Assembly: GCA_021927905.1 (NCBI GenBank)
Contig: BLLK01000052.1
Span: 312,501-376,500 of the forward strand
Direction of reading: 5' to 3'
Length of the DNA stretch: 64,000 nucleotides
From: Chaetoceros tenuissimus
Taxonomy: Eukaryota > Bacillariophyta > Thalassiosirophyceae > Chaetocerotales > Chaetocerotaceae
Shown here: piece after piece, positions 13,616 to 54,291 of the stretch
Layout of the letters: every line of letters begins with the position of its first letter
How positions within the stretch are numbered: position 1 is the first letter of the stretch
Made by a program: the position numbers and the translations under genes
Notes under the pieces: generated by a model
What the model saw: only the letters and a program-made list of their open reading frames with translations
Database searches by the model: none
Told to the model about the DNA's origin: nothing

Positions 13616-16600
13616 CTAGGATACAGTGGCAGATGGCATCTTCATGACAAGCTCATCCACTAGCGAGATGCATTTTGAAGTTTGCTGATCTGATTTTGTA
13701 AATATATCACCATCATTTGGCGTTGCTGGAGTTCTAGTTGCTGATTGACTTTTGCAATTAATGCTTTCAGAGAGAACTCGTCCCATGTCATGATAGCATC
13801 GATCACATACTCGAGAAGGGACATTTATCCCAATATCAGGCACAGCAATGCGTTGAGTGGAGCAAGGAGCGCAGACTAAACTTCCACAAGCTCGACAGTT
13901 ATGTCTGTCCCTTGCCTCTTGGGCTTCACTGTCTGAAGTACTGGCCCATGTGAACTTACTTGCGCAACAACTACAAGTCATTGCTTCCGAGAATCCAGTC
14001 CACTCTGGTAATGATTTTCTAGCGCAGCGTACTGATTTACATTCAAGTAGTGCCTCGTAATAATTCTTCGACATGTGATCGTTGAGCATATTTCCAGCAA
14101 GAGAGATTCTTCGAAGCTCTCTGAATGCCTTTGGTACTTGAGTAGCTTTGTAAGCTCCACGATGAGTATAAATATGGACAATTTTACCAGGGATAAACAT
14201 GCGAGGTAATGGTGTCTCTTCAAGAAAGATTGGATTCGCACTTGGACTATTGTCTTCTACAGTCTCCTTTGTTATTACTGTTTCTGATTCCTTTTTTGTC
14301 GTTTTAGGCTTTGAAGGTTGGGGTTCGTCAAAAGGGACATCTTCATCAAAAGGGACCCAGCTACCTAACGACTTATCACATGAAATCTCATTCTTGTTCT
14401 CGTCATCCACTACACTTTCGTCGTCACTGTGTTCAATCAAAGATTCTTCCGCTTCGTAGAAACAATCACCTTCAAAGAACAGTGTAGACTCAGAATCATC
14501 TATTTGATCTTGATCAGTTTCATCGTCCAAGTTACTTTCGTCGTATCTAATATGGAGAGGAATAGGTGTTTCTGTATCCTGATCTTCACTTTGATCTTTG
14601 ATAGGTGCCTTACATGAACCTGAAGCAAATGACTTTAACTTCTTCCCTCCTTTCTTGATCTTTTGCTTAATCTTCTTTCCTTTGGCTTTCACTTTTTTAT
14701 AAACTTTGACGGATGGATTACTTGCATGAATGAGGGAAAACCCATTCCTTAACTTTGGTGCCCATGCTGTTTTTGCTCGTTCCGTGATAGCCATAAGATC
14801 ATCGTTTAGATGAGCTTTGACCCAAGTTTCTCGAATGTAAAGTAAATGCTTTAGCAATGCTCGAATACTTGTTGGGGTTAAACGTGGAATAATATCATCG
14901 TGCAAGACACAATTAGTTACATAGCTTTGTGCATAATCTGCTAGCTTTGCATCTACACATGCTGGGCTACCATAGCTGTAGACTCTCATGACTTCTTCAT
15001 CTTTCATAAATTCTTTAGACAAGTTGAACTCGAAATGACGCTTTACAAGAGCTCCAAGTAGAGCAGCAACACTCCCTCCTAATGAATGCTATATGAGAAG
15101 TTTGAAATGTGAGAAAATATACACACAGTCAAATGTTTTAAAGAGCATAAGTAGACTTACCCCAGTCAAACGAATTCTATATCCTTGACGCGCTAGCAAA
15201 AGGATTGCATCAATATTTTCACGAAACAAATTATAGGCAGCACCGGCCATACCGCAAAGAGCAAGACCCTGACCTTTTGATATTGGAGTCCAGTCGTCAT
15301 CATTCATTTCTGCTTTACTCTGAGTTCTATGCACTCCATCCATTTCGTTATCAGGAAATTGGACAGGCATTGCACGAATATCTGTGACAACATCGTTTAT
15401 AGATGCAGTTCCTCGAATTGCAAAGCAAGCAATCTTTTGCTCGGAATGTATGAACAGTGCACTGGCCGGTTTATCCGCTACCTGTCCTCCCCAAGTTCCA
15501 TCATCTTGCTTTAAGTGTGCATAAAGAAGCCTCCAACCTTGTTGTGCAGCAAGGATCTGCATGTCTACCTCGCTTGTCGCGTAGATGAAATTTAGAGCAA
15601 GTGGTGCATAGAAAATAAGTGAGGATAAAAGACCATCTGTGACTGCAGTACATACAGGCTCGAAAGGTAATTGACTTGGTATGGAATGATTTGCTTTGCT
15701 TTTGTTATCCTTCGTATCCCCATCGTCAAGTAGATTTTCTTCCGTTTCAATGGTTGGATCATAATTATCAGTCTCGTCTACTAATATATTGGCAAATATT
15801 TTTGGTTCTTCTCCTTCTAATCCTTCTTTACTATCGTTGTCACTCGATGCTTGATGGAATCCTTCCAGAGAAGACTTTGATTCTTTTCTCTTGAGACTCT
15901 TAGACATAATCATAGCCTCATTGTCATGTTTGAGTGAATGAATACGATGTTCTCTTTCAGGATCTACCCCTCTCAGTGCTCGATGTTGTGCTAAAGCATA
16001 AAAGATGGCAGCACTCAGTTCATGAACACTCAGAGGCCAAACTTTCTTATTGATGCCAGTCACTTTACACAGTAAATCAGCAGCTGCCATGAACTCTTTC
16101 CTCAAAATCAAGCCATAGACACCCTTGAGTCCATGCTTCCTTAACACATCCAAGGTCTCAACAGTCATGGTAGCTTGTGCTCCTAAAGGAATCGATTTTG
16201 CCATATGGATAGCAGCTTTGGTCAATCTTGCAGCCCGATCTTCAACAGTATCAACACCCGTTTCAAAATAAGGAGTTAAATTCTTTCCTTTACTTTTGCC
16301 ATTCAATCCATCTTCTAAATAATCTCTACATCTCGCCATCCGCCATGCAATCCGTTCCGCCAAATTCTGTGACTCCAAAACCTGTTTGCAAGGAGCACAA
16401 ACTCGTTCCGGTACATCTGGAGAATATCCTAAATGTGGTAACCGATGTGACCAACGCGAATGAGCTTGACAATACGATCTACCACATAATCTACAATGAT
16501 GCCTCAGTGTCGCTCCAAATTTCCTCCTACATGCATAACACGAATTAGCATTCTCCCATGGTGGCTTTTGTATAGGTTGCGGTAACAATTTCCGTGCTTG

Positions 16601-17506
16601 ATCAAATTCATCCTCTTCTTCCAATTCCTCTTGACTGCTAGTATCTTCTTTGATAGTATCATCCTTTTGAGTCAAATAATCACATGTCCGCCACTCTTTG
16701 ACCAATTGTCGATCTACCCAAGATAAACTACTAAATGGCGGTAATAACAATCGTTGTTTATCCCATTCATCCTCCCAAGCTGGTCCATTGGGTATTTCCT
16801 TTCTCACCAAGGCATCGTCTCCGACTTGATCATCATGTTCCTCCTCACAATCATTATTTTGTAGTAGCATACCTTCTTTCCAAAGTAAATTACCATGTTG
16901 ATCCCTAATCCCTTCTTCCCTAATCACACTGCGATCATAACCACCCATTTTATTCCCAACTTCAGTATTTTGCAAATAAAATTTTCCAAAGAGTTTACTC
17001 TCCGAATACGATATTTTAGTATAATGATATGCCTTATATGCTGAGGCGGAAATGAGTTCTTGTGCGAGGGGAGGTAATATTTGTGTTGTGATGTTTTGCA
17101 TTGTTGATAATTGTTTTTGAATCGAGTCGGTGATTATTTTGGTAGTTTGAGATGTGACTGATGCAGTTTTTGAAGATATAGCCGTCGTTTCTTGAGATTT
17201 GATTTCGTTTCTGAGAGTTATTTGTTCTTCGTTTTCTTTTATAGGAACGTCATTCTCTTTGCTCTTCTTTTCGTGATTATTAGAAGCTGTTTCTATGTTT
17301 CCTCTCGGGGGACTGTACCAAGAAGAAGGGGGAGGAACAATCTTGACGGAATCATCGACAGAGTCAGCAAGACTCTTGACTTCCTGATGAGTACAAGAAG
17401 AAGCAGAAGAAGAGACTTTAATGTTTGTAGGAACTGCAGAGAAGGTATCATCATCAAGAACATCGGCTGCCATTCTCGTCTCTTTGCTTTGAGTTGTTTC
17501 TGTCAT
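13616..17506 (-). CDS. Class-3 (diacylglycerol-lipase-like) lipase flanked by two FYVE fingers
   Basis: Two exons (17506-15161 and 15088-13616), 72-bp intron with GTAAGT donor and CATATAG acceptor, 1272 aa. The splice restores the nucleophile elbow: ...RIRLTG joins HSLGGSVAALLGAL, giving GHSLGG at about residue 782. Other lipase marks are SYGSPACVD, HDDIIPRL (acid region) and, later, LNDHMSKNYYEALL, like the His region of DAG lipases. FYVE 1 (about 322-375) has CYACRRKF, RHHCRLCG and CAPCK; FYVE 2 (about 1150-1205) has CSCCASKF, RHNCRACG and CDRC. The N-terminus and a region after the lipase Ser are acidic and disordered. Likely acts on lipids at endosomal PI3P membranes (inference). Confidence 0.88.
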
Positions 17507-21327: not shown

Positions 21328-22539
21328 ATGAATTCATCAGATGAGAGGCTGAGACTATTCCAAGAAATAATTCATCATCAACCATCACCCATTGATCTCT
21401 TACCCGATCAAGTTGAAGCTTATATTTTCAACAATGTACCTCCAAAACAATGTGGAAAGGTACTCAAAGATTTAGGATACATATTACCTCTAATCAAGTA
21501 TGATAATAAAGAAATGACGGCTGTGGATGAGTTTACCGGTGAAAAGAGGTATAAATGGGCTTTGTTGGGTCATTTACGACGAGTCAGACGGGTCAAGAAA
21601 TGTATAGATGCCAGTGCAGTAACATCACCACCGAAAAAGAAACAAAAAGGATCGAACGATTCTTCTATTGAATTGCAAGTATTAGTCGGATCTGTAGAAC
21701 ACGTTGATGCAATTTTTGCAGAACCTAGTGTAGATCCAGAAACAAGAGATAAATTGCAAAATCTCATGAATGCCAATGAGCTCAAGCTTGAAAAACGTAT
21801 GTTACCTGGTAGACTTGCCAAATCACAGGAAGAATTACATGAATGGAATAGTCGATATGATGGACAAGGATGGTGGCCAACTCTCTTTTTTGAGAAACAG
21901 TCAAGTGAATTCAAAGAAAAGGAGATGGAAATCAGTATAGAGGAAGAATATTCCATATTCAAAACATTTCTACAAGCAGCTATACAAGATGCGAAACAAT
22001 ATCATTCCTTACTCAAGCAAAATGTATATAAAGGATGTGGAGCTATCGTTGTAGATCCAGAATCAAATAGAATAGTTTCATCATCGTTTGATGAATTTAA
22101 TGCAAAGGTACAAGAAGAAGTAAATAGAACTGGGAAATCTATAGAATATGTTCAAAATCTTTTATTGGGGAATCCACTCAATACTCCAGTTATGTTGGCG
22201 ATTCAAGGAGTGAGTAGGATAGAACGAAATGCAGCATCTGGACTCGGAATGGATAGTAATTTATTCAAAAATGGACAATATTTATGTACTGGATACGATG
22301 TATACCTTACAAAAGAACCAGGTGTCTTTGAATCCATGTCATTGGTTCATTCAAGGGTTCGACGGGTCATTTTTGGTGTGAGCAATATGGAAGATGGTGG
22401 TTTAGGTGGAACAGGGAATACTACATCGGTACATTGTCTTCCTGGAACCAATCATAGATATCGTGCATTTCGGTTATTAGAAAGTGACAATAGTGACTTG
22501 TGGAATAAATGCAAGAAGCTCTGTACGTTATTCTACTAA
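21328..22539 (+). CDS. TAD3: tRNA-specific adenosine deaminase regulatory subunit Tad3/ADAT3-like
   Basis: 403 aa, single exon. Tad3 pairs with Tad2 to convert A34 to inosine in tRNA anticodons. The C-terminal deaminase fold is recognisable: PVMLAIQGV (Tad3 has V where active deaminases have Glu), YLCTGYDVYLTKEP, MSLVHSRVRRVIFG, and GGLGGTG...LPGTNHRYRAFR. The N-terminal half carries a basic PPKKKQK run (possible nuclear signal) and the GWWPTLFFE block typical of ADAT3. Oddity: the residues that hold zinc in ADAT3 are absent. The His before A/P-V is Thr (NTPVM), and the P-C-x-x-C motif reads PGVFE. Family assignment is strong; zinc binding is doubtful. Confidence 0.87.
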   Translation: MNSSDERLRLFQEIIHHQPSPIDLLPDQVEAYIFNNVPPKQCGKVLKDLGYILPLIKYDNKEMTAVDEFTGEKRYKWALLGHLRRVRRVKKCIDASAVTSPPKKKQKGSNDSSIELQVLVGSVEHVDAIFAEPSVDPETRDKLQNLMNANELKLEKRMLPGRLAKSQEELHEWNSRYDGQGWWPTLFFEKQSSEFKEKEMEISIEEEYSIFKTFLQAAIQDAKQYHSLLKQNVYKGCGAIVVDPESNRIVSSSFDEFNAKVQEEVNRTGKSIEYVQNLLLGNPLNTPVMLAIQGVSRIERNAASGLGMDSNLFKNGQYLCTGYDVYLTKEPGVFESMSLVHSRVRRVIFGVSNMEDGGLGGTGNTTSVHCLPGTNHRYRAFRLLESDNSDLWNKCKKLCTLFY

Positions 22540-40368: not shown

Positions 40369-42120
40369 ATGAGTGCAGGTTCTCTAGCTGGATTCACATC
40401 ATCAGACTGTCAATATAATAAAAACACGTTGAACATTAATGATTTATCTCTAGCTCACGGAAGCCGAACCCTATTCAATAATGCATCTTTTTCAATAAAT
40501 CGAGGAGAAGTTTCAGGTCTGATTGGTATCAATGGTTCTGGTAAAACTTCTCTGAGTAGGATTCTTGCATCGAAAGAACTTCCAGGATTTCCTCAAAGCT
40601 TTACAGTCGAATATCTTGCAGCATCTGACGATGAAGAATTTTTAGCTGGCACTTATACCGAAGAGTACAGTGAAATTCTAGCTTTGAAGCCTGTGGACTA
40701 CATTAATCAAAGAGTCAAGTCAAGAACACAGCAGCTACAAGATAAAATTGATGAATTGGAAGGTCTTTTAGTTGATGAAGAGGTCGAAGAGAGTGGCATT
40801 GAGGCTATTTCGGAAGAGTTATCAGATTTATATGAAATTCAAGAATCTTTAGAAGAATCAACCAAGCGAGAAATGGATCGAGCTATAAGCAACTTGGGTT
40901 TAAATGATTACCTAGAAAAGTCTCTTGGGGACTTATCAAGTGGTTGGAGATACAAATGTAGGCTTGTGGCTGCATTTTTGGTCCATCCTGATTTATTGAT
41001 TATTGACGAACCTTCATTTTTAGATAGCGAGTCGACAGAATGGTTGATTTCTATGATCAAAAACATCACAAGAGCAAGTCAAGCAATGGTTCTTTTCATT
41101 TCGCATAAGGAAGCTTTACTAGACTCTCTTTGCGACTCTATCATATACATCAATGCATCAAATCACTCCATTACAACATATCACGTTGGATATTCTCAAT
41201 TTAGAGCAATTCACGAGAAGCAGATTGAAGGTGCTAACAAAACAATAGCTTCTACGACGGACGATATGGTCAAAGCAGAGAAATCACTGAAGCAACTAAA
41301 AGTACAAATGAAGAAACGAGAAAAGAATTTAAAGGCAACTACGAGTCAGAATTCCGATCAACGATTTATCAAGGGCAAGAATAAAGAAGCAAAGCAAAAG
41401 GCTGATAAGTCAGCAGCTTCGAGACTGAAGAAAGCAAAAGCTGCAGTAGATGATCTTGAATCGGTACGTAATGCAGCAAAGAAGGAAAAAGTAAAGTCTA
41501 TTCATATTAAAGGACAACCAATAGATCGAGTTGCAATTACGCTCGCATATGTTGGATTCAAATATGATGCCAATGATGAATTTCTATTTCAGAATGTAGA
41601 TGTCAGTGTAGAGCCACATGATAAGATTTTATTGAAAGGAAAGAATGGATGTGGAAAGTCTACACTAATCAGGCTCATCCTTGGGGAGCTGGAACCAGTT
41701 GAAGGATCTATAACGAAACATGGCAAATGCATATATTTTCCTCAAACAGCTCTAAGTTTACTGATTCGACAACATGGTAACTCAACCGCAATGGATTACT
41801 TGGGTGAAAACCTCACACAAACCGAAGCTAGACATCATCTTGGAGATTTTGGATTAGCTGGTGACTTATCTGTTCGAAGTGTCAACACACTATCTGCAGG
41901 TCAAAAGGTAAGATTGTGGTTGGCAAAGGAATGTTTGACGAATAAAACGCCAGCTATACTGATTCTTGATGAAATATCTGAAAATGTCGATATTGAAACC
42001 AGAGATTCGCTATTGGAGCTATTAGAGTCCTTTGATGGAGCATGTATTGCTATTTCTCATGATTCAGACTTTAGCAAATCATTAACTAACCAAATTTGGC
42101 ATAAGAGAAACCTTTCCTGA
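40369..42120 (+). CDS. ABC-F family ATPase (two nucleotide-binding domains, no membrane domain)
   Basis: 583 aa, single exon. NBD1: LIGINGSGKTSLSRIL (Walker A, about residues 55-70), LSSGWRYKCRLV (signature), LLIIDEPSFLD (Walker B), FISHKEALLD (switch His). A Lys/Glu-rich linker with a coiled coil (residues about 285-385) follows. NBD2: LLKGKNGCGKSTLIRLILG, LSAGQKVRLWLAKE, AILILDEISENVDIE and AISHDSDF. ABC-F proteins act on ribosomes or in translation control. The usual DEPTNHLD reads DEPSFLD in NBD1 and DEISENVD in NBD2, so this is a divergent member. No transit peptide is obvious. Confidence 0.88.
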   Translation: MSAGSLAGFTSSDCQYNKNTLNINDLSLAHGSRTLFNNASFSINRGEVSGLIGINGSGKTSLSRILASKELPGFPQSFTVEYLAASDDEEFLAGTYTEEYSEILALKPVDYINQRVKSRTQQLQDKIDELEGLLVDEEVEESGIEAISEELSDLYEIQESLEESTKREMDRAISNLGLNDYLEKSLGDLSSGWRYKCRLVAAFLVHPDLLIIDEPSFLDSESTEWLISMIKNITRASQAMVLFISHKEALLDSLCDSIIYINASNHSITTYHVGYSQFRAIHEKQIEGANKTIASTTDDMVKAEKSLKQLKVQMKKREKNLKATTSQNSDQRFIKGKNKEAKQKADKSAASRLKKAKAAVDDLESVRNAAKKEKVKSIHIKGQPIDRVAITLAYVGFKYDANDEFLFQNVDVSVEPHDKILLKGKNGCGKSTLIRLILGELEPVEGSITKHGKCIYFPQTALSLLIRQHGNSTAMDYLGENLTQTEARHHLGDFGLAGDLSVRSVNTLSAGQKVRLWLAKECLTNKTPAILILDEISENVDIETRDSLLELLESFDGACIAISHDSDFSKSLTNQIWHKRNLS

Positions 42121-50041: not shown

Positions 50042-53000
50042 ATGACTGCAGAAGAAAGCATGCAGCCAGCGGACGGAGCAGCAACCGAAGAGCTCTATCA
50101 CACAAACCTGTTGAGACTTCAGGCAACTCAACTTCTCTCCGAGTCCATGTTGCCTCTTTCCTCTCACATTGGAATGTTACATAATGAAGTCAAATGGGCC
50201 AAGGAAGCATGGACATACATTGACAACATTAAAAGAGCCATTTCATCCATCAAATCGACAAACCTTTCACCCGATGAATTGAAATTCAAAGAGTCGGATA
50301 AATTTTGGACCAAACTTCATTCCGACAAGGCAAGAAAACACTTTGAAGAACAATCATGGGAATTTCCATTTCAAGGCGGTGAGAGTTTGAAAATGGCTCC
50401 TATTCATTCGTACGCTGCCAATGGTGCAGGATTGACTACTTCCATTGCCAATGCGAATACATTACCCACTCTCGATCTTGCTGTGTTGATGCCTGTCAAG
50501 AGTAAATTTGAAGAAGAAAATGATGATGGCTTCATTGGTGGTAAAGATTATTTGAATGGAAGATATTTTGATGTAAGTCTTTTATACAGTTTCTTGTTCT
50601 TTTCTTTTTTCTATCAGGGTCTCACCTCTTTTTCTGTTTCTAGAAACGAAATATTCTTGCAATTCATGTTGCCAAATTCTTGTCGCAAAAGAAGCAACGT
50701 AAAACTATAGGAGGAGTACACATTGTCAATGAAGTGGATGGAGACCATCGGAAAGTAGCAGTCATTTTGACTCCACCTGTAGATGATTCTGATACAGCTG
50801 AAAAGGGAGGTTCCAAAAAGAAGCGAAAAGTGGATACAGAACAAAAAAAGAAGAAGCGAAAAAAGACTCGTTTCAACGTGAGATTAGTGTTTGGAGTTCA
50901 ATTTGAAGGGGCTAGAGATAGTCCTGATACAAATACCGGATGGATGCCTTCTGCAAGATTGTTTCCAGACAGATGTAATAATAAAGTTGCAGAGGTCAAG
51001 GGGCAGAATACTACCAATGATGCAACTCCCATGTATAATAATTCTCTTGCGGCTGACTTGCATTTACTTTCCAACACGGATATTTTGTCGAGTGTTTCAA
51101 TTACTGCACTCAAGGCATTTTCAGAATCATGGAATTTGCTCAAGATTTGGTGTTTGCAACGAGGCTTCTTGAGGGGCAGTGATACCTTTACCGATATGAC
51201 ATTGGGTTTGTCACTTGCATACCTCTACAGAAGCAAAATGGTTAGTGCTAGAATGGATAGTGTCCAAGTCTTTACTGTATGGATGAAATTTATCAGTGAT
51301 CAAGATTGGCTAGGTGAAAAGGAACAGCGTAAAAAGAAGGGAAGTGAAGTGAATGAAGATACTATTCGTTACTCTAGTAGTATTGGATATCGTGATTTGA
51401 ATATTCGTGCTACCAGAGGAAAGAGATTCCGTGGAGGTGTTGTCATGCCAGAAGCAGACATGTCGGAAAAGGAAACCGTCGCACAATGTATTCAGAATCG
51501 TTTGTTTGCTTCAGATATCAAGCAAAAGATTAGTACATCTAATGAAAATGCTGAAATTCCAAAGAACTTGATGGAGAGCTTCAAAATGAGCACAGACTCT
51601 CCTATATTTCTTGATCCTTCCATGACCAATAACTACTTTGGCAATATTTCTCCTAGTTTCATCCGTGAAGTTCAAGCTGAGGCAAAGAAGGCTCTAGAGT
51701 GTATACATTTCCATAGAGATAATGGATCTGATGAGGCATCTGCTCATAGAATTGATCCATTTCGACAATTGTTTCTCGAACAGCTTCGATTCTACAAACG
51801 CTACGATGCTTACATCAGTTTCGACTTGAAGGATATCATTACTCCAAACCTCGATGAAAACAATAGTGGTGCATCGTTTTGGGGCAATGATGCACAAGAT
51901 AGAGGCAATTATGCTTCCATCGCGAATGGATTAGTTCAGGTTCTAAACATGGCTCTAGGTGACAGAGTATCTGCAATTCGAGTCTTGACCACTGGTAATG
52001 GAGATCCTTCGAGCAAAAACCATTTCGACAAAGATATGAGTACAAGTGTAATTGTTGGAAGTGACGAAATTCAAATGATTCCAATCAGGGTTTCCAATGA
52101 TTCGGTATTCAGTGGACTCGACCTCGATAATGTTTCTTCTCCTGTATCGGGTGAAAGTAGAATCACTCTCGGAGTTAAAATCAATAGAGAAAACTGCTAT
52201 AGGTTAGTAGATAGAGGTCCTCCAGCTAATGACACAAAGGCATCTCAAGATTTTGTTTCGCTCTGGGGAAAGAAAAAAGCTCAGTTGAGAAGATTCAAGG
52301 ACGGGGCCATTGTACATGCAGTTGTTTGGAGTGAAGATAGTCCAGTTATCGGTAATGATGCTGTATCTTTTGAAAATGATGAGACTATGGGTAGCATTGT
52401 AGAACGAATCATTCGTCACATCTTCCATGGACATTTTATTAAACAAGATGTTGTTAGTGAATCAACATTCAAGCTAAGGAACTTGTTGTCGCTAGTTGAG
52501 GGTGCAAAGGCTGAGTTGAAAGGTAAAGGTGTAATTGTGAACAGTTCAGAAGCAGCTCATAAGAGTATTATCTCAGCATATGAGAAACTTGCTTCATTTT
52601 TGAAGAAGAATAGTCAAATGGAAGAAGTTGGACTCAATCAAACTAGGTCAAAGCTTGGACTACCTTTGTCCATCGATGGCGTAGATCCTCTATCTCCTTC
52701 ATTGAGATACACATCGACCTTTCCACAAACACCTCATGCATTCCTAGGGACCACATTAAAGCCCGAAAAGCGTGTAGCTGGCGCTATTGCTAATGATCCA
52801 ATCCTAATGCAAATCAAGTTCGAGGCAAGTTCCAAGTGGCCAAATGATATGGCAGCTATGGGAGCAGCAAAATGTGCCATGCTAATGCAAATAGCCGAAG
52901 GTATTGAAGAATTGAAAGAGAAGGGAGACTCTACATGCGCACTTTTTGACGGACCTATAAATGTTACTCCTAATTATATTGATTTAGGATTCAGTGGATA

Positions 53001-54291
53001 TGTCTGGAGAATAGTCATTCGAGCAGAGCAAGAATTGCACATGCTTCAAAAGTTGAGAGATCCGTCTCCTGAAGCTGTAGAATTGCTTCATACTTTGATA
53101 AAAAATCACGTCACTCTATCTCAGCATCATTATACTATCCATAGTGTTACTTCAAAACATCCAGCTGCTGGCTACACCACACGTCTTCTCAATAGATGGA
53201 TCGCCTCGCACATGCTCTCAGGTCATGTTCCTCATGAAGCTGTTGAACTTATTGTGGCAAGTGTATTTAGCGATCCATCCCCTCTCGAGATTCCAAGTAC
53301 AGCTCAATGCGGTTTTGTCAGATGCCTCAAACTTCTTGCTGAACATGACTGGAGAAAGAATCCTTTGATTGTCGATCCAGAGGGACACATCAATTCAGAA
53401 GATCGACTTGAAATACTGAAACAATTTGAGGAGTTACGAGGAATTCAATTCGAAAAAGGTCCAGCTATTTTTATAATTTCTCCAAATGACAGTCAAGACA
53501 ATGGACTTTATAGACCTTCCTTTACAAGTCATACACCGGAACGTGTAGTCTTGTCTCGATTGAGCGCACTTGCAAAACGATCACACGACTTTTTAATTGC
53601 GAACCTCAAATCAAAGTCAATGACCAATAAAGATAGTTGGAGTAGTGTCTTTCAGACAAGCCCAAACTCCTTGAAATCCTACAGTGTCTTATTTCGTATC
53701 GACCAAAGTCTTTGCATTGACAAAGGATGCTCATCTACAGCAGGTTCCTTTGCAATCACCAAGGATAAGGATATGATTTCCACTCCATACAATAAAAGCA
53801 TGGAAAAGATTTCCGCTGGTCCAAAAGATCTTCGACTCAAGGCATACAAGAATATCCAACAAACTGATTCTCTTGTATTGAATTTCCAACCTATCAAATA
53901 TCTCATGCAACAACTCAAGTCACAATATGGAGAGTATGCTGTCTTCTTTTACAATGAGTATTGTCCAGATATTATTGCTATGCTATGGAGACCATCTGCG
54001 TTTGAGAGAATGGCATTCAGTGCCATGCATGCTGAATTTACTTCACCATTAGATCAGAATTGGGAGGCAAATGCGCTTGTAACTTCTAATGCAAGTGATA
54101 TTCTTAGAGCAATTCGAGGCACAATGTCGGATGTTCTTGTCGATGTAAAAGTCTTGGTTGATAAATCTCTTGATTTTGAAAGTAAGCTTGATGAAAAGGT
54201 TGATTCTGCTACTTCAACAAAGAAGAAAAGAAAAGCAAAAGCAGCAGAAGAAGAGGTGTCAGACTCCAGTAGTGAAGAAGATAGTGATTAA
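50042..54291 (+). CDS. UTP22: UTP22/NOL6 (Nrap) ribosome-biogenesis factor
   Basis: Two exons (50042-50572 and 50644-54291), 71-bp intron (GTAAGT...TTTCTAG), phase 0, 1392 aa, usual size for the family. Nrap domain 1: LPTLDLAVLMPVKSKFEE then KDYLNGRYFDKRNILAIHVA spans the junction, proving the splice. Later domains: LKAFSESWNLLKIWCLQRGF, IVERIIRHIFHGHFIK, HHYTIHSVTSKHPAAGYTTR, and RLLNRWIASHMLSGHVPHEA (poly(A)-polymerase-like OAS1 part). The family is a nucleotidyltransferase-fold scaffold of the small-subunit processome. A Lys-rich insert near residue 230 and an acidic Ser tail (EEEVSDSSSEEDSD) fit a nucleolar protein. Confidence 0.92.

What the first reader, a model, noticed from the sequence alone, without database searches (positions are those of the whole stretch)
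21328..22539. Tad3/ADAT3-like subunit without any of the three zinc ligands
In the sequence the deaminase core of this otherwise clear ADAT3 reads NTPVM where family members have H-(A/P)-V, and KEPGVFES where they have EPCxxC. Yeast and animal Tad3 lack the catalytic Glu but keep the zinc-binding His and two Cys as a structural site. Loss of all three, with the surrounding fold (YLCTGYDVYLTKEP, MSLVHSRV, NHRYRAFR) intact, suggests a metal-free pseudo-subunit, or that Tad2 supplies everything.
Basis: partly seen in the sequence, partly recalled or inferred. Interest (0 to 1): 0.7.

Follow-up and report, generated by a model that had tools for sequence, protein, structure and literature searches.

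The report
Diatom Tad3 without its zinc site
The helper half of the enzyme that makes inosine in transfer RNAs has, in this diatom, lost all three residues that usually hold its structural zinc, although its active partner looks normal, so nature may have built a zinc-free version of a part thought to need the metal.

Summary
ORF 21328-22539 (+) is an intact 403-aa Tad3/ADAT3 by sequence (mouse ADAT3 E 8.7e-17). At least six base changes separate it from His/Cys/Cys, so base error is unlikely. The genome (by its sizes Chaetoceros tenuissimus NIES-3715) showed no second Tad3 and a canonical Tad2. The residues by which other ADAT3s serve the Tad2 pocket and the tRNA are kept (His341, Asn375-His376). 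Nuclear tRNA-Ile was found only as five identical A34 genes (census incomplete), so inosine-34 is probably needed. Best reading: a working Tad2/Tad3 with one zinc, in Tad2. Published yeast work found the Tad3 metal critical for stability, so this is a surprising variant of a known kind. Metal content, activity and spread among diatoms are untested; no other diatom Tad3 could be reached. A Tad2 Arg / Tad3 Glu pair replacing the zinc is a bold, untested extension.

The parts
21328..22539 (+). Tad3/ADAT3 homologue, 403 aa, single uninterrupted frame
21922..22536 (+). deaminase-fold (pseudo-catalytic) domain, residues 199-403
   Evidence: AlphaFold2 with 40 bacterial TadA: mean pLDDT 85, pTM 0.82; best PDB matches are TadA and mouse ADAT3
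22183..22185 (+). Thr286 (ACT) in the zinc-ligand His column (yeast His216, mouse His223)
   Evidence: yeast and mouse numbering from PMC7713142 and PMC8216470
22189..22191 (+). Val288 in the catalytic Glu column, Val as in other ADAT3s
22321..22323 (+). Gly332 (GGT) in the first zinc Cys column
22330..22332 (+). Glu335 (GAA) in the second zinc Cys column
22348..22350 (+). His341, counterpart of the ADAT3 His that reaches into the ADAT2 pocket (T. brucei His300, mouse His298): kept
   Evidence: role from PMC9643335
22450..22455 (+). Asn375-His376, counterpart of Asn331-His332 in the T. brucei ADAT3 RNA-binding loop: kept
   Evidence: role from PMC9643335
22474..22536 (+). C-terminal tail, residues 383-403, ending KCKKLCTLFY; in yeast and mouse the tail caps the pseudo-site and gives the fourth zinc ligand
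   Evidence: yeast and mouse role; role here inferred

Best explanation
This is the only Tad3 found in the diatom genome and, most likely, a working, metal-free pseudo-subunit. Tad2 carries the one catalytic zinc; Tad3 pairs with it, lends a His (His341) to the Tad2 pocket, holds the anticodon arm through its Asn-His loop and probably its N-terminal region, and lets the pair make inosine-34. The former zinc pocket is held by side chains instead of metal (Thr286, Phe334, Glu335). Shown: sequence, loss of the ligands, no second Tad3 found, canonical Tad2, A34 tRNA genes. Inferred: pairing, activity, lack of metal, what fills the pocket.
For: Homology to ADAT3; three ligands replaced in two alignments; no second Tad3 with the window protein, a T. 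brucei ADAT3 piece, PF00383 or PF14437 (control); Tad2 with HAE, EPCIMC and a KR-rich tail; His341 and Asn375-His376 kept; intact frame; five identical nuclear tRNA-Ile(AAU) genes and no near variant; confident deaminase-fold model of the C-terminal domain.
Against: In yeast, C322S/H216A Tad3 went insoluble and the authors call the metal critical for stability (PMC7713142, passages). The fold model was made with a TadA alignment, so its fold is partly built in, and it says nothing of metal; the full-length model failed (pLDDT 34). No expression, activity or close relative was at hand to show selection. Outside the zinc loop the protein also departs from columns shared by mouse and T. brucei (8 of 25). 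Nuclear tRNA-Arg(ACG) and Val(AAC) were not found with my patterns, so the need for inosine-34 may be smaller than usual.
Confidence: 0.66

Rival explanations
1. Tad3 still binds a metal through other residues: Glu335 plus tail cysteines Cys395/Cys399 or another His or Cys, a rewired site.
For: Glu can bind zinc (general knowledge); yeast and mouse use a C-terminal residue as fourth ligand; two Cys stand in the tail.
Against: All three core ligand columns are changed, and Thr and Gly are not usual zinc ligands; a tail Cys would have to make the site almost alone.
Confidence: 0.1
2. Relaxed relic: the diatom needs little inosine-34, and Tad3 is decaying or kept only as a stabiliser or for another task.
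For: No nuclear tRNA-Arg(ACG) or Val(AAC) found by pattern; Arg(TCG), Val(TAC), Thr(TGT) and Ala(TGC) genes are present; 12 of 33 columns shared by mouse and T. brucei are changed, 8 of them outside the zinc loop.
Against: Intact 403-codon frame; partner-facing His341 and Asn375-His376 kept; five tRNA-Ile(AAU) genes. The tRNA census is incomplete (63 of 2031 candidates scored).
Confidence: 0.14
3. Side paralogue: a canonical Tad3 exists but is missing from the assembly or cut by introns beyond recognition.
For: Six-frame search without introns; only best candidates are scored.
Against: Assembly 41 Mb against a k-mer estimate of 39.7 Mb (PMC8613185); PF00383 gives six deaminase places, none a Tad3 by my reading; canonical Tad3 pieces match PF00383.
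Confidence: 0.07
4. Sequence or assembly error.
For: None beyond the possibility.
Against: Three separate codons, at least six base changes, frame intact; Illumina plus Nanopore, 150-fold, if the organism is identified rightly.
Confidence: 0.02

Closest known systems
ADAT3/Tad3 of mouse (7nz7, 7nz9), yeast (7bv5), T. brucei (8aw3)
   Same: Same family by sequence; Val in the Glu column of yeast, mouse and T. brucei; the His for the partner's pocket is kept; the Asn-His of the RNA loop is kept as in mouse and T. brucei
   Different: Those keep His, Cys, Cys (with bound zinc in yeast and mouse); here Thr, Gly, Glu
T. brucei ADAT2/3 described as active with a single zinc (Spears 2011; paper not held; title and citing sentences seen only)
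   Same: Idea that one zinc can suffice for the heterodimer
   Different: T. brucei ADAT3 has the ligands; [quoted passage not shown]
Broken C-terminal domain of E. coli cytidine deaminase (recalled, from no call)
   Same: A deaminase-fold domain without a zinc site serving an active one
   Different: Another family, fused in one chain
Bacterial TadA homodimer
   Same: Fold and motif positions
   Different: Both subunits catalytic; the 40 examined keep HAE and PCxxC (search partly selected for PCxxC)

Membership tests
ADAT3/Tad3 | Sequence homology closest to ADAT3 among solved proteins | tested here: met
   The top five of 13 PDB sequences are ADAT3 chains (three mouse, T. brucei 8aw3_3 labelled 'Deaminase, putative', yeast), E 8.7e-17 to 6.5e-9
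ADAT3/Tad3 | Catalytic Glu replaced, usually by Val | tested here: met
   Val288
ADAT3/Tad3 | Zinc ligands His and PCxxC kept ('rather conserved' in the 81 sequences of PMC7713142). A usual feature; I take homology and the partner-facing residues as what defines the family | tested here: not met
   Thr286, Gly332, Glu335
ADAT3/Tad3 | His that reaches into the ADAT2 pocket | tested here: met
   His341
ADAT3/Tad3 | Asn-His RNA-binding loop | tested here: met
   Asn375-His376
ADAT3/Tad3 | N-terminal tRNA-binding domain | tested here: inconclusive
   About 198 residues precede the deaminase domain, but the five phmmer alignments shown start no earlier than residue 178 and the full-length model failed
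ADAT3/Tad3 | Canonical ADAT2 partner in the genome | tested here: met
   G000:C27, about 143276-143872, L007
ADAT3/Tad3 | Heterodimer with ADAT2 and inosine-34 formation | not testable with these tools
   needs protein and tRNA
Pfam PF00383 (zinc-binding deaminase) | Score over the curated cut-off | tested here: not met
   No match at E<=1 for the whole protein or the domain; yeast and T. brucei Tad3 pieces score 40.3 and 32.4 bits against a cut-off of 25. NCBIfam's TadA model matches residues 324-379 at E 2.5e-6, far below its cut-off (27.4 of 150 bits)

The most novel reading that the evidence does not exclude
The zinc was replaced by an inter-subunit salt bridge. In yeast, Gln97 of Tad2, six residues after its second Cys, bonds the zinc-ligand His216 of Tad3; the same position of mouse and T. 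brucei ADAT3, and Met92 of S. aureus TadA, reaches into the partner's site. In this diatom that Tad2 position is Arg, and Tad3 has Glu335 in place of a zinc Cys: an Arg (Tad2) - Glu (Tad3) pair could hold the empty pocket and lock the heterodimer. Arg stands there in 0 of 79 readable bacterial TadA (80 loci, one not read) and in none of the human, mouse, T. brucei and yeast Tad2 (Leu, Leu, Tyr, Gln). No distance could be measured.
Probability: 0.18. Interest if true: 0.65.

Novelty: new variant of a known kind. Interest (0 to 1): 0.55.

Why it matters
The yeast and mouse ADAT heterodimers hold zinc in both halves although only one half is catalytic, and why the dead half keeps its metal is open: yeast mutants suggested it is hard to obtain a working Tad3 without it, while a T. 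brucei paper (title only) speaks of one zinc being enough. A natural ADAT3 with no core zinc ligand makes this directly testable and gives a starting point for one-metal tRNA deaminases. I found no printed report of a zinc-less ADAT3 in searches of an open-licence library (listings, and passages of six ADAT papers); subscription journals are mostly not held.

Tried and rejected
Sequence error: rejected, at least six base changes in three codons. Second Tad3: searched with the window protein, a T. brucei piece, PF00383 and PF14437, none found. Reading the His column as Asn: rejected in two alignments. Relatives in viral contigs: one protein scan and two pattern scans gave none. The one genome-contig scan that ran was for TadA, none for Tad3. 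No collection of eukaryote genomes was at hand, so other diatoms could not be compared. Full-length structure from one sequence: pLDDT 34, not used. A domain model with TadA worked, but its coordinates are not given, so pocket distances could not be measured.

tRNA patterns. Arg(ACG): 13 places (control, pattern read backwards: 41), 13 of 13 scanned with ARAGORN, only the chloroplast gene is a tRNA. Ile(GAT): 40 places (control 36), 30 of 40 scanned, none a tRNA; this pattern also missed the mitochondrial tRNA-Ile(GAT) that ARAGORN names in L026, so it is not a sensitive test. Val(AAC): 0 places (control 6), but the pattern asks for G before GTTCGA and would miss a T-arm like that of the Val(TAC) gene. 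TAGR: 4 places (control 17), not scanned. One of 39 nuclear tRNA hits gave no ARAGORN call (L067).

Because of these I lowered the best reading from 0.68 to 0.66 and raised the relic rival from 0.12 to 0.14.

Full report
What is there. The frame 21328-22539 on the + strand is 403 codons, ATG to TAA, uninterrupted. phmmer against the PDB puts ADAT3 first: mouse 7nz9_B E 8.7e-17, T. brucei 8aw3_3 1.6e-12, yeast 7bv5_C 6.5e-9, then TadA. Pfam does not recognise it as a zinc deaminase, while the yeast and T. brucei Tad3 pieces pass PF00383 with 40.3 and 32.4 bits.

The zinc site. In yeast the ADAT3 zinc sits on His216, Cys254, Cys257 and the C-terminal Cys322; in mouse on His223, Cys289, Cys292 and Asp348 (PMC7713142 and PMC8216470, passages). 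Here the first three columns are Thr286, Gly332, Glu335. A separate alignment with 40 bacterial TadA, chosen by me from 80 fetched, gives the same columns. Those 40 carry HAE and PCxxC, but the search used the peptide TLEPCPMC among others, so PCxxC is partly selected for. The yeast paper calls HAX and PCXXC 'rather conserved' in its 81 sequences; of the 151 first collected, 125 were Ascomycetes.

What is kept. The T. brucei tRNA complex shows that ADAT3 gives one His (T. brucei 300, mouse 298) to the ADAT2 pocket and has an RNA-binding loop with Asn331, His332 and His333 (PMC9643335, section 8 read, other passages seen). The window keeps the His (341) and Asn-His (375-376), with Arg third as in mouse. 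Of 14 columns identical in mouse, T. brucei and yeast within 317-353, 10 are kept and the 4 lost (two Cys, Met, Ala) lie in 330-338 (p 0.035, boundary set afterwards). In the 33 columns shared by mouse and T. brucei within 317-382, 21 are kept; 4 of the 12 lost lie in that loop and 8 outside it, mostly mild changes such as Val/Leu or Phe/Tyr. So the zinc loop is hit, but it is not the only part that diverged.

The genome. G000 has 41,027,912 bases in 68 contigs; the largest contig seen has 4,456,483 bases, and two have 36,047 and 116,465. The Chaetoceros tenuissimus NIES-3715 paper gives 41.0 Mb, scaffolds up to 4.46 Mb, mitochondrion 36,047 and chloroplast 116,464 (PMC8613185, passages). I take that as the organism; the inference rests on these sizes. 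The window protein finds only itself; a T. brucei ADAT3 piece finds the window gene and Tad2. PF00383 gives 10 matches which I group into six places: Tad2 (C27), a bacterial-type TadA (C21), a RibD-like protein with a CRM domain (C48:1649753), a guanine-deaminase-like protein (C42; name by recall), a tandem dCMP-deaminase-like place (C54; name by recall) and a weak one (C48:2026666). None is a second Tad3 by my reading. The window gene itself is not found by PF00383.

The partner. Tad2 is canonical: RHAE, EPCIMC, and a C-terminal DKRKRK aligned to the KRKRK of T. brucei ADAT2.

The demand. The Rfam tRNA search scored 63 of 2031 candidates; 39 of the 63 are nuclear. ARAGORN names 38 of those 39; 6 of 39 have A34: five Ile(AAU) and one Ala(AGC), with a second, by my reading poorer, Ala(AGC) beside it. 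The tRNA-Ile sequence occurs five times, all identical, with no near variant, so AUC codons appear to rest on inosine-34; a strongly diverged tRNA-Ile(GAT) is not excluded, and my pattern for one missed the known mitochondrial gene. Against a large demand, nuclear Arg(ACG) and Val(AAC) were not found by my patterns; the census is incomplete. A chloroplast tRNA-Arg(ACG) fits the bacterial-type TadA.

The fold. Residues 199-403 with the 40 TadA give a confident model, pLDDT 85, pTM 0.82. Foldseek lists A. aeolicus TadA and mouse ADAT3 first; of the 50 rows shown mouse ADAT3 7nz7_B has the highest query-normalised TM-score, 0.62, at rmsd 4.9. The alignment was made of TadA, so this shows compatibility, not proof. 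The full-length single-sequence model failed.

How it probably works. Tad2 is the one-zinc catalyst; Tad3 is its mate and RNA guide. The metal that in yeast could not be removed without losing solubility (C322S/H216A) is here replaced by side chains. A sharper version: the Tad2 residue six after its second Cys, Gln97 in yeast, bonds the Tad3 zinc His; here it is Arg, seen there in 0 of 79 readable TadA and in none of four solved Tad2s, and could pair with Tad3 Glu335. That is inference; human and mouse Tad2 have an Arg one residue earlier.

Novelty. Searches of the open-licence library show no report of an ADAT3 without zinc ligands; I saw listings, passages of six ADAT papers (PMC7713142, PMC8216470, PMC9643335, PMC4810244, PMC6382703, PMC6751630), and whole sections of two (section 6 of PMC7713142, section 8 of PMC9643335). 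The T. brucei single-zinc paper is known to me here by title and citing sentences. I call this a new variant of a known kind.

Noticed in passing
L003 and L002 (G000:C54:2063669-2064684, - strand): Tandem dCMP-deaminase-like domains: one has HAE but PANESAK where the other has PCCECAK, so another deaminase domain in this genome has lost both zinc Cys.
   Followed up: partly
L004 (G000:C48:1649753-1650199, - strand): RibD-like deaminase domain in one frame with a CRM (CRS1/YhbY) RNA-binding domain.
   Followed up: no
L012 (G000:C21:684803-685285, +) and L082 (chloroplast C68:74199-74227): Bacterial-type TadA with HAE and EPCPMC, likely for the chloroplast tRNA-Arg(ACG).
   Followed up: partly
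G000 nuclear tRNA genes: Nuclear Arg(ACG) and Val(AAC) were not found by pattern; Arg(TCG), Val(TAC), Thr(TGT), Ala(TGC) are present. Possibly few A34 tRNAs; the census is incomplete.
   Followed up: partly
window 21586-21723 (residues 87-132 of the Tad3): Very weak NCBIfam match to HP0495_fam (E 0.048, 14.4 of 45 bits) in the N-terminal part; possibly chance.
   Followed up: no
window 13616-17506, - strand: Two neighbouring frames with FYVE fingers, one with a class 3 lipase piece; perhaps one split gene.
   Followed up: no
window 40369-42120 (+); 50680-54291 (+): Protein with two ABC-ATPase stretches; Nrap/Utp22-like protein with five of six Nrap domains above their cut-offs.
   Followed up: no
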